Shown piece after piece: positions 5,399-27,612 of a DNA stretch of 34,619 nucleotides. The first letter of the stretch is position 1; every line of letters starts with the position of its first letter. The stretch covers positions 1 to 34,619 of the forward strand of contig JAGVLJ010000037.1 in the NCBI GenBank assembly GCA_020049855.1, written 5' to 3'. The translations under genes and the position numbers were made by a program. Origin of the DNA: Bacteroidia bacterium. Lineage in GTDB: Bacteria > Bacteroidota > Bacteroidia > UKL13-3. The notes beneath the pieces were generated by a model, which searched no databases, had not been told where the DNA came from, and saw nothing but the letters and a program-made list of their open reading frames with translations.

Positions 5399-5440
5399 AT
5401 ACAGAAAAGGGGGGGCTGATGAGGCTCCCCTTTTCTGTAT
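5399..5440. terminator. Hairpin terminator after nfu gene
   Basis: A perfect 14-bp inverted repeat pairs 5399-5412 with 5427-5440 around a 14-nt loop; the arms are rich in A4G4/C4T4. It starts 18 nt after the nfu stop codon. The T run lies within the stem arm, so it may work on both strands. Confidence 0.75.
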
Positions 5441-23358: not shown

Positions 23359-23464
23359 GTGTCGGCAAAATAAAGTAAAATTCGTTTACAGTTGATAGTT
23401 CGCAAACTATTGACTGTTGTCCATGACCCACACTCTCTCCCCCGGCCAAACTATATTTGGATTT

Positions 23465-23508
23465 CCCCCCCCCATTGGAAGATGAATTTGTTTTTCATAC
23501 TACTTTCG
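23465..23508 (+). promoter_or_regulatory. C9 tract and promoter-like elements before TonB receptor gene
   Basis: A run of nine C (23465-23473), one base, then TTG (23475-23477), 23 nt, then TACTTTCG (23501-23508, one mismatch to TAnnTTTG); the ATG is 31 nt further. A second possible -7 box, TATATTTG, lies at 23452-23459, which would put the C tract in the leader instead. Confidence 0.4.
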
Positions 23509-23539
23509 GCTATGTTGTACTGATTTTTTTAACACTCTT

Positions 23540-25846
23540 ATGCGATTTATAGCAATCATTCTGTTTTTTACCACCGCATTTGCAGCGCATGCCCAGCAAG
23601 GTGTGGTACATGGCATCCTTAATGATGCGGCAACCCAACAGCCCGCCCCTTATGTGTACATTAAAAATGGTAAGCAAGTAATTGCTGTTACCGATTCATT
23701 GGGGAGGTTCAGGTTTAATTTACCTTATGGCAAATATTCTCTCAGTTTTGAAGGTATAGGTTACAAAACACTTATGCGAACAGTTACCGTAAGCCAGCCC
23801 GACATGGAAATAAATCCGGATATTGAACCCTATACCAATGTGTTAACACAGGTAGTGGTTTCGGCCAGTCGCCACGAGAAAAAAATTTCGCAGGAAGTAG
23901 TTTCACTAAATATCATTAAACCTGATTTGATTATGAATACCAACTCGGTTGATTTGGCCGATGTGGTAAACAGAGTGCCTGGAGTAAATGTGGTAGACGG
24001 TCAACCTACCATTAGGGGAGGAGTAGGGTTTTCTTACAATACCGGGAGCCGAGTAATGGTATTGCTAGATGATATGCCATTGATGGGGCCTGAAGTGGGC
24101 GATGTGCAATGGAGGTTTTTGCCAATTGAAGCAGCCGATCAGATTGAAGTAGTGAAGGGTACCAACTCTGTACTTTATGGTTCATCGGCATTAAACGGGT
24201 CAATAAATGTGCGCACCGGATGGCCCACTAAAAAACCTGAAACTAAAGTAACTTTTTTTCAGGGAGTTTATCAAAACCCTAAGCGGTTGCAGCAGGTATG
24301 GTGGAAAACGGGCTCTCAACCCAACCAGTCGGGAACTTTCTTTTCCCATAAACAACAATTCGGGAATTTTGATTTAGTATGGACGGGTAATATCTACACT
24401 CAAAACAGCTACCTGCAGCAGGCCGATAACAATAGGGCACGTATGTATATAAAAACCCGCTACCGAGATCAAAAAATTAAGGGATTGAGTTACGGAGTAA
24501 ACATCAATATGCTGATGGAAAAGACAGGTCGCTTTTACTTGTGGCAGGACGGGGATACTAATATTTTTAAACCCTATGGTGGCGAGGCAGACCAGTTTCC
24601 TTTTTTTATGCTCAGTATTGACCCCCATATTACCTACGAAAAAAAAAATGGAACGCGTCATGCGTTAAAAATGCGGTACTATGATTTGGTTCGATACCCC
24701 GATAAAATAAGATTCCCTATAGGACGAGGAGCCAATGCTCAGATTCTGGCCATTGATTACAGTTTTAAGAAAATATTTTTTAAAAATTTTATCAGTACCA
24801 CCGGAACCTACCTTACCTTCTGGGGAGCCCACAGCAATAATTATCCGGGCAAATTTAAAGGACTATCAGGAGCTGCTTATTCCCAATTGGAATATCTTAA
24901 AAGCAGGTGGTCGGCAGTGGCGGGATTTCGGTATGAAATAAATGCACTGGGAGTGCTTAAAAAAACTCCACGACCCTTATTCCGCTCCGGAATAAATTAT
25001 AAGGTTGCTAAAAAAACACACCTGCGTTTATCTTATGGCGAAGGATATCGTTTTCCTACCATTGCCGAACGATATGTACAGGATCTGGCAAGCGATTTAC
25101 CCATCTATCCTAACTCCGATTTAAAAAGCGAATTCGGATGGTCGGGCGAGTTTGGCGTCAATCAGGGGTTTACCGTTGGTGGGTTTAACGGGTACATTGA
25201 CTATGCAGCCTATTGGATGGAATATACCGATATGATTGAATATACATTTAAGCAATGGTATCCGCCTCAGCAGCCAGGTGATCCGCTGGGACTTGGGTTT
25301 AAACCAATTAATATTGGCCGTGCCCGCGTGGCCGGCATGGAGGCCTCCATTAGCGGTGAAGGAAAAATAGGAAATGTATTGGTACGCACACTGGGTGGGT
25401 TTACGTATAGTTATCCAATTAATCTGGTTTATGATACGGCCGCACGCACTCCTTCAAACTATGTTAAAAAGTTTTTTTCAAACACCAAAAAAGCAGATAG
25501 TGCCGATGTAATTAATATGCTACCATACAGAAACCGCAGTTTGTTAAAATGGGACATTGATGCCACCTATAAACGATTCACCATTGGGTATAGCATTTTC
25601 TTTTACGGGGTAAACGAAAACATTGATTTGTTTTTACTGTATCTGGTTCCGGGTTTAAAAAGGTTTCAGGAGCGTGTGGGCCCGGGTGACTGGATTCATA
25701 ATATACGTTTTCAGTGGAAGGCCAGTAATGTTATTACAGCCGGTTTTATGGTAAATAACTTGCTTAATCACGAGTATGCCATACGCCCGGCAAAACCTGA
25801 TGCTCCACGAAATTTTCTGGTGCAGGTAAGGTACGAAATACGCTAA
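23540..25846 (+). CDS. TonB-dependent outer-membrane receptor
   Basis: Outer-membrane active importer of 768 residues. The signal peptide is residues 1-18 (ending AAHAQ). A carboxypeptidase-regulatory-like domain (about 21-100) contains VHGILNDAATQQPAPYVYIK and SFEGIGYKTL. A plug domain (about 115-225) carries LADVVNRVPGVNVVDGQPTI, RGGVGFSYN, and GTNSVLYGSSALNGSINVRT. The barrel runs to the C-terminus and includes RLSYGEGYRFPTIAERYVQD and NLLNHEYAIRPAKPDAPRNF. No susD neighbour is present, so a siderophore, vitamin or other small substrate is likelier than glycan uptake; the substrate is unknown. It converges on a T9SS-cargo gene with 4 nt between stops. Confidence 0.92.
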   Translation: MRFIAIILFFTTAFAAHAQQGVVHGILNDAATQQPAPYVYIKNGKQVIAVTDSLGRFRFNLPYGKYSLSFEGIGYKTLMRTVTVSQPDMEINPDIEPYTNVLTQVVVSASRHEKKISQEVVSLNIIKPDLIMNTNSVDLADVVNRVPGVNVVDGQPTIRGGVGFSYNTGSRVMVLLDDMPLMGPEVGDVQWRFLPIEAADQIEVVKGTNSVLYGSSALNGSINVRTGWPTKKPETKVTFFQGVYQNPKRLQQVWWKTGSQPNQSGTFFSHKQQFGNFDLVWTGNIYTQNSYLQQADNNRARMYIKTRYRDQKIKGLSYGVNINMLMEKTGRFYLWQDGDTNIFKPYGGEADQFPFFMLSIDPHITYEKKNGTRHALKMRYYDLVRYPDKIRFPIGRGANAQILAIDYSFKKIFFKNFISTTGTYLTFWGAHSNNYPGKFKGLSGAAYSQLEYLKSRWSAVAGFRYEINALGVLKKTPRPLFRSGINYKVAKKTHLRLSYGEGYRFPTIAERYVQDLASDLPIYPNSDLKSEFGWSGEFGVNQGFTVGGFNGYIDYAAYWMEYTDMIEYTFKQWYPPQQPGDPLGLGFKPINIGRARVAGMEASISGEGKIGNVLVRTLGGFTYSYPINLVYDTAARTPSNYVKKFFSNTKKADSADVINMLPYRNRSLLKWDIDATYKRFTIGYSIFFYGVNENIDLFLLYLVPGLKRFQERVGPGDWIHNIRFQWKASNVITAGFMVNNLLNHEYAIRPAKPDAPRNFLVQVRYEIR

Positions 25847-25850
25847 TAAA

Positions 25851-26585
25851 TTAGTGCTTAATCAATAGTCTCTGAGCAGCCAATTGCCCATCGCACTCCA
25901 TTTCCACCAAATAAAGCCCGTCAGTAAGGGTAGAGGTATTAACGGATAGTTCATAGGTTGAGTTGGTGGGGGTAATTTCATGCGAAGTAACTACGGAACC
26001 AACCATATTGATTAGTTTAATAGTTGCGCTTTTATTTATCTGCGAAAGTTTAATGGTTACCTCGTTGGCGGCAGGATTTGGGTAGGCACTGAATAAATTA
26101 TTGCGCGAGGGGCTGTTACCAACAGAAGTTGGCCATTGCAATACTTTAAAATCATACACCCCTGAGTCGTACCGGGCAATATTGTAAAAGCCTAATACCA
26201 GCGTATTGGTTTTAATCATAATTTTAATTGCATAATCGCCTACCTCAGCCAGTGCGGGAGTGCCCGATATGGTTGCACAACCATAGGTTCCTCCCTGAAA
26301 AGTACAGGTTGAAATATTACATGCATACGATAGACTTGCCGGTTTTCCGGTCATGCTTTCAATGCGTGCATCTACTACTTTTACGCTAATCAAATTACCA
26401 TTATACTCCAACATGGTATCTTTAGGTATTTTAAAGTACACCACCTGGCTGTATGGCGCACCTACTACGGCATTTTCCAATATTTCCGGTTCAATATAAC
26501 TGGTCATACTTGTTTTAGGCGTACATTGGCTGTATCCGTAAAATCCTGTTATCAGGAGGCTGAGGAGGGTAATGACTTTTTTCAT
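25851..26585 (-). CDS. Secreted protein with T9SS C-terminal sorting domain
   Basis: Exported protein of 244 residues. The signal peptide is about 1-19 (MKKVITLLSLLITGFYGYSQ). Residues about 25-150 are a beta-rich region with several Cys (SYACNISTCTFQGGTYGCAT), likely disulfide-bonded; it resembles an Ig-like or putative-binding domain (AEVGDYAIKIMIKTNT) but I cannot name it. Residues about 165-244 are a type A T9SS sorting domain: FSAYPNPAANEVTIKLSQ, IKLINMVGSVV, LTDGLYLVEMECDGQLAAQR and LLIKH at the end. It should cross the outer membrane through T9SS and be cell-surface bound or released. It has the best-formed promoter seen on this strand. Confidence 0.85.
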   Translation of the reverse strand: MKKVITLLSLLITGFYGYSQCTPKTSMTSYIEPEILENAVVGAPYSQVVYFKIPKDTMLEYNGNLISVKVVDARIESMTGKPASLSYACNISTCTFQGGTYGCATISGTPALAEVGDYAIKIMIKTNTLVLGFYNIARYDSGVYDFKVLQWPTSVGNSPSRNNLFSAYPNPAANEVTIKLSQINKSATIKLINMVGSVVTSHEITPTNSTYELSVNTSTLTDGLYLVEMECDGQLAAQRLLIKH

Positions 26586-26602
26586 ATGATGCTCTTTACG
26601 TT

Positions 26603-26644
26603 CAAAGATAGGATAATTTATGAAATGGTTGCAAAGGGGGGGGG
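26603..26644 (-). promoter_or_regulatory. Promoter with C9 tract before T9SS-cargo gene
   Basis: On the minus strand: nine C (26644-26636), then TTTG (26635-26632), 21 nt, then TATCTTTG (26610-26603), and the ATG 17 nt later. Both -33 and -7 elements match the Bacteroidota consensus with normal spacing. The C tract touches the -33 box. Confidence 0.65.
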
Positions 26645-26661
26645 ATTGATCAAAAAACAGC

Positions 26662-26686
26662 CTTTTTGGGACATAAAACCCAAAAG
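26662..26686 (-). terminator. Possible terminator after small lipoprotein gene
   Basis: On the minus strand CTTTTGGG, a 9-nt loop and CCCAAAAAG form a stem, followed after four bases by T6. It lies about 60 nt past the stop of the gene ending at 26748. The stem is AT-rich and weak. Confidence 0.35.
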
Positions 26687-26747
26687 ATCACGCATTTCTT
26701 TTACCTTTCGGTTGGATATTTCTTGCGGTCTTTGCTAAGATGCTATA

Positions 26748-27185
26748 TTACTTTGCTTCATCATAATCGGCCTGAGTGATGGAGTAATAATTCATATAAT
26801 TCCGTTCAGATTGCTTAATAGTTGTGTAACGAAAACTATTAAATAGACTCACTGTATCCTTTGAACAATCCTTAACAACCGATTCAACAGCTTTATCACT
26901 ACAGTTATAATCAATTTTTTCTTTACCATCAAAAAAGGTTACAATAATTGAATCTGAATCATCAAAATCAAGATGTGGACCATCACTACTTTCTTGTCTG
27001 TATACGTATGATTTGCCTGCCGGAATTTTAAAAGTAGTCAACGACCAATAAAGCTTAATATTTACTTCCTGATTAAATGAATTTATAATGGTAATATCAT
27101 TTCTCCAAGCATGATCAACAGTCTTTGTGCAGGTGGTAAACAAAGGTAACATACACATACCAAAACAAATTTTCCAGATGCTCAT
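26748..27185 (-). CDS. Small lipoprotein, unknown function
   Basis: A 145-residue exported protein I cannot assign. The signal sequence ends in LPLFTTC (lipid Cys at 19). The mature part is beta-strand rich (DITIINSFNQEVNIKLYWSL, SDSIIVTFFDGKEKIDYNCS) and recalls small beta-sandwich lipoproteins of Bacteroidota that open with an I-T-I-x-N-x-F/S-x(3)-V pattern. Two later Cys (in YNCSDK and KDCSKD) could pair. The ATG overlaps the stop of the upstream lipoprotein gene as ATGA, so the two are translationally coupled. The pair is AT-richer than its neighbours. Confidence 0.7.
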   Translation of the reverse strand: MSIWKICFGMCMLPLFTTCTKTVDHAWRNDITIINSFNQEVNIKLYWSLTTFKIPAGKSYVYRQESSDGPHLDFDDSDSIIVTFFDGKEKIDYNCSDKAVESVVKDCSKDTVSLFNSFRYTTIKQSERNYMNYYSITQADYDEAK

Positions 27186-27385
27186 ATATTATTGTAATAT
27201 GAAAATAGGTTATTTAAATCAGTACTTGAAGTTTTATTCAATTGGTCTAATTTTGCTTTCATATCGTTTAATGATTGGCAATCCGGCAAGGCATCTTCTA
27301 CTTCAACATCTTTGTGGCAAGAAAAAACAAAAGCGAAAATAATTAAACAGAGGCTAACTTTAATGATTGAATTTCTGATTTTCAT
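27182..27385 (-). CDS. Very small lipoprotein, unknown function
   Basis: A 67-residue protein with a clear lipoprotein signal (LIIFAFVFSC, lipid Cys at 23) and a 44-residue acidic to neutral mature part (DVEVEDALPDCQSLNDMKAK...) that looks like a short amphipathic helix. It is the first gene of a two-gene unit; its TGA overlaps the ATG of the next gene. Nothing further can be said about function. The region 27386-27612 upstream and toward cinA holds no ORF that I can support. Confidence 0.65.
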   Translation of the reverse strand: MKIRNSIIKVSLCLIIFAFVFSCHKDVEVEDALPDCQSLNDMKAKLDQLNKTSSTDLNNLFSYYNNI

Positions 27386-27612
27386 ATTCGATTAGTTTAG
27401 ATATTATTTCATAAGTAAATAAATTGTTGCATGTAACAAATTTATTTTTGCACGGGTTTAGAACCGGGCATGTTTTAATTATACTTTACAGAGGGTATTT
27501 TACGAAAAGGAGGATATAGATTTTTTGGCGGTCAAATGTTTTTATTTATTCCTCCATATCTGCTAATGAAGCAGGCGGTTTTTTAAGGTAAAGGGGATGG
27601 CATGACAATGTG

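What the first reader, a model, noticed from the sequence alone, without database searches (positions are those of the whole stretch)
23465..26644. Matching C9 tracts next to the -33 boxes of two convergent surface-protein genes
Both the TonB receptor gene (+) and the T9SS-cargo gene (-) that face each other have nine consecutive C on their coding strand, then one base, then TTG, then 21-23 nt to a TAnnTT(T/C)G box. The tracts are 23465-23473 (+) and 26636-26644 (-). The same placement twice, flanking one receptor/secreted-protein pair, suggests a slippage-prone control (phase variation) or a shared regulator site. In the cargo gene the tract touches a textbook -33 element. An alternative -7 box at 23452-23459 weakens the case for the receptor gene.
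Basis: partly seen in the sequence, partly recalled or inferred. Interest (0 to 1): 0.55.

Follow-up and report, generated by a model that had tools for sequence, protein, structure and literature searches.

The report
Two poly-C tracts near surface genes
Two runs of nine C lie upstream of a facing pair of surface-protein genes; only one touches a conserved promoter, nothing shows that they work together, and clearer candidates for poly-C on/off switches in this bacterial group lie elsewhere, in the export signals of secreted proteins.

Summary
"The same placement twice" holds only for the cargo gene: its tract abuts TTTG-N21-TATCTTTG, unchanged in sister genome G002, whose tract is an interrupted C7. 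A better -7 box, TATGTTGT (23511-23518), fits the alternative-sigma motif TAnnTTGY and puts C9 13 nt above its TTTG. G002 lacks the receptor tract, and eight further relatives with the pair have no C6+ run in the upstream DNA read. One pair of C9 tracts this close is expected by chance about one time in three.

I reject a paired switch and a shared regulator site. The cargo tract may be a slippage-prone promoter tuner, like the T tract of H. pylori sabA; variation among cells was not testable.

Poly-C switching looks more convincing elsewhere: 5 of the genome's 20 C9+ runs sit in signal-peptide codons of secreted proteins, 3 of them out of frame. In two surveys 26 of 49 examined start-proximal tracts are signal-peptide-like, and 19 of those 26 are out of frame.

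The parts
23465..23473 (+). C9 tract upstream of the TonB receptor gene; 13 nt above the preferred -33 element; probably incidental
   Evidence: absent in G002 and G001
26636..26644 (-). C9 tract upstream of the T9SS-cargo gene, abutting the -33 element (about -38 to -46 of the inferred start)
   Evidence: TCA-C7 at this place in G002
26632..26635 (-). TTTG, -33 element of the cargo promoter
   Evidence: identical in G002; sequence match only, start not mapped
26603..26610 (-). TATCTTTG, -7 box of the cargo promoter (sigma-A type TAnnTTTG), 17 nt before the ATG
   Evidence: kept in G002 and, as TATCTTTG, in G001; motif
23487..23490 (+). TTTG, preferred -33 element of the receptor promoter
   Evidence: kept in G002
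23511..23518 (+). TATGTTGT, preferred -7 box of the receptor promoter (fits TAnnTTGY), 21 nt before the ATG
   Evidence: kept in G002; TATATTGT in L142 and L145; motif SM5; start not mapped
23501..23508 (+).
   Evidence: ATCTTTCA in G002
23452..23459 (+).
   Evidence: not kept in G002
23540..25846 (+). TonB-dependent receptor gene, 768 aa
25851..26585 (-). T9SS cargo gene, 244 aa, with C-terminal sorting domain

Best explanation
The two tracts are independent and are not a paired switch. The cargo tract is a fast-changing C homopolymer fused to the upstream edge of a conserved sigma-A-type promoter. Most likely, slippage by one or two C shifts and rotates the upstream DNA against the unchanged -33/-7 core and so mildly tunes cargo transcription, rather than switching it off, as the T tract beside the -35 element of H. 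pylori sabA does. The receptor tract is a feature of this genome alone among those compared, lies 13 nt above a different kind of promoter (TAnnTTGY), and is probably incidental. Shown: the tracts, the conserved cargo core, the absence of the receptor tract in the sister genome, the difference between the two cargo tracts. Inferred: slippage, the receptor promoter, and any effect on transcription.
For: Cargo core TTTG-N21-TATCTTTG identical in G002 while the tract differs and the 657 columns above it hold 5 substitutions and 1 indel. TAnnTTTG is concentrated just before starts in this lineage: 17 hits within 30 nt against 2 for the reversed word, 60 upstream regions. Receptor tract missing in G002 and G001; no C6+ upstream in seven more pairs. 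A tract in the same position, next to the -35, tunes sabA.
Against: The sister tract is interrupted (TCA-C7), so an unbroken slippage-prone tract is not required for this promoter. The difference rests on two changes in one place. 2 of 20 C9+ tracts upstream of starts is within chance. No reads, no transcript starts, no expression data. TAnnTTCG-like words near the start in L140, L141 and L143 leave the receptor promoter uncertain.
Confidence: 0.45

Rival explanations
1. Both tracts are incidental homopolymers without regulatory effect.
For: Numbers and closeness are within chance; neither unbroken tract is conserved; other C8-C9+ runs lie inside genes that read open across the tract, such as those in L001, L007, L016 and L017.
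Against: The cargo tract abuts the -33 element of a conserved promoter, and the sister genome keeps a C7 in the same place.
Confidence: 0.38
2. Coordinated phase variation of receptor and cargo by slippage in matching tracts.
For: The only two C9NTTG words in the genome flank this one convergent pair; promoter poly-C varies a TonB receptor, FetA, in N. meningitidis.
Against: Placement differs, promoter types differ, receptor tract absent in G002 and G001, no tracts in seven more pairs.
Confidence: 0.07
3. The C9 words are two copies of one regulator's binding site.
For: Same word, same strand relative to each gene, one pair.
Against: No conservation of the receptor word; no matching flanks beyond the C run; the word with a -33/-7 promoter is found nowhere else in 64 genomes.
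Confidence: 0.03
4. The receptor uses TATATTTG at 23452-23459, so that C9 lies at about +2 to +10 of the transcript and acts by slippage of RNA polymerase at initiation.
For: The box is a perfect TAnnTTTG and the inferred start, 23464, is next to the tract (start rule).
Against: Box and tract are both missing in G002, and I saw no TTG at 19-21 nt above the box.
Confidence: 0.04
5. The tract lengths are assembly or sequencing errors.
For: The genome is an 84-contig draft; homopolymers are error-prone in some sequencing methods (recalled).
Against: G002 shows a C7 at the cargo site, and several C9 runs lie inside genes that read open across them, so lengths are not generally corrupted.
Confidence: 0.03

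Closest known systems
Helicobacter pylori sabA promoter T tract (PMC4081817; abstract and passages seen)
   Same: A homopolymer directly beside the upstream core-promoter element of a surface-protein gene.
   Different: T instead of C; a different sigma factor; there length variation and a graded effect on transcription were measured, here neither. sabA also has a frame-switching tract in its coding start; the window's cargo gene has none.
Neisseria meningitidis fetA promoter poly-C tract (PMC13293289; abstract and passages seen)
   Same: Poly-C in the promoter region of a TonB-dependent receptor gene.
   Different: In fetA the tract is in the core promoter and varies among isolates (6C to 14C in the passages seen); here the receptor tract lies 13 nt above the -33 element and is missing in the sister genome.
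Sigma-A (TAnnTTTG) and SM5 (TAnnTTGY) promoters of Flavobacterium psychrophilum (PMC9723704; passages and part 1 of section 15 seen)
   Same: The cargo -7 box fits TAnnTTTG; the preferred receptor -7 box fits TAnnTTGY.
   Different: No transcription start is mapped here, and the organism is only distantly related; the paper's motifs have no poly-C element in the text I saw.

Membership tests
Homopolymer-mediated transcriptional phase variation (cargo gene) | Homopolymer in or directly beside the core promoter | tested here: met
   C9 abuts TTTG of TTTG-N21-TATCTTTG
Homopolymer-mediated transcriptional phase variation (cargo gene) | Tract length varies among strains or cells | tested here: inconclusive
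   Only one sister genome compares: TCA-C7 against C9; no reads available
Homopolymer-mediated transcriptional phase variation (cargo gene) | Expression depends on tract length, reversibly | not testable with these tools
   needs reporter or RNA data
Homopolymer-mediated transcriptional phase variation (receptor gene) | Homopolymer in or directly beside the core promoter | tested here: not met
   On the preferred promoter (TTTG 23487, TATGTTGT 23511) the tract is 13 nt above the -33 element; depends on that promoter being right
Homopolymer-mediated transcriptional phase variation (receptor gene) | Tract kept, with varying length, in relatives | tested here: not met
   Absent in G002, G001 and seven more pairs
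Translational poly-C frame switch in signal-peptide codons | Poly-C tract just after the start codon | tested here: not met
   The window's C7+ runs start at 5409, 10497, 23465 and 26636, none in the first codons of either gene
Bacteroidota sigma-A promoter (cargo gene) | TAnnTTTG -7 box a short way before the start | tested here: met
   TATCTTTG 17 nt before the ATG, kept in G002; TATCTTTG also in G001
SM5-type promoter (receptor gene) | TAnnTTGY at -12 to -5 of a mapped start | tested here: inconclusive
   TATGTTGT present and kept in G002; TATATTGT in L142, L145; other words in L140, L141, L143, L146, L055; no start mapped

The most novel reading that the evidence does not exclude
Uncultured Bacteroidia carry a dispersed contingency system in which poly-C tracts in the signal-peptide codons of large T9SS-secreted proteins set the reading frame at random, and the tract at this cargo promoter is a transcriptional member of the same strategy, so that each cell shows its own mix of secreted surface proteins.
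Probability: 0.25. Interest if true: 0.65.

Novelty: new member of a known kind. Interest (0 to 1): 0.35.

Why it matters
If the cargo tract tunes its promoter, it would be a sabA-like promoter homopolymer in Bacteroidota, where phase variation is best known through DNA inversion (recalled; the review passages seen mention only inversion or invertases for Bacteroides, apart from a temperature-dependent shift). The signal-peptide poly-C tracts met on the way would matter more: they predict stochastic on/off export of T9SS proteins in environmental Bacteroidia, which existing metagenomic reads could test. Eight searches of the paper library on this theme listed no paper whose title or abstract start reports such a system. 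That is a weak negative: two of them listed only 20 of 63 and 15 of 99 papers, most listed papers were not opened, and the library lacks most subscription journals.

Tried and rejected
Paired phase variation and a shared regulator site: rejected on conservation, placement and promoter type.

A mobile cassette bounded by the inverted C9 words: considered because the words face each other around the pair. Rejected because the convergent pair exists without tracts in relatives and, to the eye, the two tracts share no flanking sequence beyond the C run; the repeat search was run on each upstream region separately, not between them.

Markov expectation of C9+ runs: the values for G000 ranged from 2.5 to 68 with model order and training sequence, so I did not use them.

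-33 spacing learned from this lineage: too few hits to be informative.

Raw counts of start-proximal tracts: in the family search 28 forward or reverse windows stand against 20 reversed-pattern windows in 64 genomes, so the bare number of such sites is not significant outside G000 (10 windows against 0). The argument rests on the frame structure, and the hydrophobicity cut-off of 2.0 used there was set after seeing the values.

Full report
WHAT IS THERE. The genes are a TonB-dependent receptor (768 aa; Pfam plug, barrel and carboxypeptidase-regulatory-like domains) and a 244-aa protein with a T9SS C-terminal sorting domain. They converge and nearly touch. Genome G000 has 2,912,739 bases in 84 contigs. 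The contig of sister genome G002 matches in length a record titled MAG: Bacteroidia bacterium isolate SSF48.

HOW RARE. C9NTTG occurs twice in G000, both here. There are 20 distinct C9+ runs. Window totals give C7 52, C8 20, C9 17 and C10 3 runs (derived). Chance expectations: 0.42 pairs of C9+ runs within 3.18 kb (P of at least one 0.34); 0.67 of 20 within 80 nt upstream of a start on the same strand (2 seen, P 0.15, about 2,440 genes extrapolated from the window); 0.45 of 20 followed by NTTG (2 seen, P 0.07). That both belong to one convergent pair is rarer, but the coincidence was noticed after the fact.

CARGO PROMOTER. C9 abuts TTTG (26632-26635), then 21 nt, then TATCTTTG (26603-26610), 17 nt before the ATG. 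TAnnTTTG is the -7 box of the main sigma factor in F. psychrophilum (PMC9723704), and in this lineage it is concentrated just before starts: 17 hits within 30 nt against 2 for the reversed word in 60 upstream regions. That TTG or TTTG serves as the -33 element is recalled. In G002 everything from TTTG to the -7 box is identical, but the tract reads TCA-C7. The 657 aligned columns above the tract hold 5 substitutions and one T indel. The tract thus changes faster than its surroundings, as slippage would predict, though two changes in one place are thin evidence. G001 has TATCTTTG and no tract. If the start lies 5 nt below the box (box position), the tract spans about -38 to -46.

RECEPTOR PROMOTER. 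What G002 keeps is TTTG (23487-23490), 20 nt and TATGTTGT (23511-23518), 21 nt before the window's ATG. L142 and L145 carry TATATTGT at about the same distance. These words fit TAnnTTGY, motif SM5 of F. psychrophilum, most likely read by an alternative sigma factor according to that paper. Against this, L140, L141 and L143 show TAnnTTCG-like words 10-11 nt from the start, L146 TATATTCA and G001 a plain TATTTTTG, so the assignment is likely but not certain. On this reading C9 lies 13 nt above the -33 element, and in G002 the place reads CAGCCCCGGGATAAGG.

CONSERVATION OF THE PAIR. Both sister genomes have the convergent pair: receptor 93% and 65% identical, cargo 73% and 45%. Of 27 cargo-homolog loci from further genera and families (L027-L053), seven show a receptor homolog in convergent position at 43-47% identity, and two (L042, L052) a weaker one upstream instead; several loci end at contig ends, so absence means little. 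In G001 and those seven, neither gene has a C6+ or G6+ run in the 300 nt upstream (93 nt for the cargo gene of L142). The pair is old and the tracts are not part of what is conserved. In 64 genomes of the family, C7-N0-2-TTG-N19-23-TAnnTTTG is found once in G000 and once in G002, both at this cargo promoter; the reversed-pattern control gave 1.

POLY-C TRACTS ELSEWHERE. Of the 20 C9+ runs of G000, 5 begin 16-26 nt from the start of an ATG, just before the hydrophobic core of a signal peptide. By position 0.34 would be expected, but the leaders form two related groups and are not independent. Two are in frame and three out of frame. Three of the five genes carry a T9SS sorting domain, one of them a subtilase domain as well; two matched no family. 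In the family search (64 genomes) all 19 sites were examined: 12 have a signal-peptide-like start with one tract phase opening the gene (5 in frame, 7 out of frame), 7 do not (L122 and L125 have near-identical leaders and may be one event). In the class search (395 genomes, 49 with a match) the 30 loci returned were examined, not the remaining listed sites: 14 are of this kind (2 in frame, 12 out of frame), 3 have a long frame without a hydrophobic segment, 13 have none. Together 19 of 26 are out of frame, close to the two thirds expected if length drifts freely against the frame. Homopolymer errors in drafts could give the same picture, so reads are needed. Of 8 such genes scanned whole or nearly so, 6 carry the sorting domain.

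MECHANISM AND VERDICT. The best reading is two independent tracts: a slippage-prone homopolymer at the edge of the cargo promoter, which may tune transcription as the T tract beside the -35 of H. pylori sabA does, and an incidental receptor tract. FetA of N. meningitidis shows that a promoter poly-C can vary a TonB receptor, but there the tract is in the core promoter. Neither slippage nor an effect on transcription is shown here. That both tracts are merely incidental is nearly as likely.

PAPERS. PMC4081817, PMC13293289 and PMC11868660: passages only. PMC9723704: passages and part 1 of section 15. All others: search listings only.

Noticed in passing
G000 loci L002, L003, L004, L012, L021 (genes in L147-L150, L152); relatives L087, L122, L125, L130, L131, L136, L138; class loci L163-L192: Poly-C tracts of 8-14 C just before the signal-peptide core of secreted, often T9SS-sorted proteins, more often out of frame than in frame: candidates for a dispersed translational phase-variation system.
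   Followed up: partly
window about 26600-27500: A block of nearly 1 kb, from the cargo promoter through the neighbouring 145-aa lipoprotein-like gene, is 98-100% identical to G002 while most of the compared backbone is about 80-90%: probably a recent exchange between the two lineages.
   Followed up: partly
window 27303-27304: G002 has about 1.48 kb more here, most of a 560-aa gene with an HEMAH motif; the window keeps only the two ends of that gene.
   Followed up: no
window 23388-23417: Imperfect inverted repeat with 13-nt arms and a 4-nt loop between the divergent 122-aa gene and the receptor gene; G002 has a 21-nt tandem repeat (three copies) in the corresponding intergenic region.
   Followed up: no
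window 25851-26585: The cargo protein diverges much faster than its partner: 73% against 93% identity to G002.
   Followed up: no
whole genomes G000, G002, G001: C9+ runs are very unequal in one genus: 20 in G000, 11 in G002, 1 in G001 (84% complete).
   Followed up: no
L018 (G000:C76:28812-28821): A C10/G10 tract lies where a gene with a signal-peptide-like start breaks into two overlapping frames; possibly another out-of-frame tract.
   Followed up: no
L196 (G000:C18:7991-8144): Two C8 runs in opposite orientation, 146 nt apart, near the start of a gene with a signal-peptide-like beginning.
   Followed up: no
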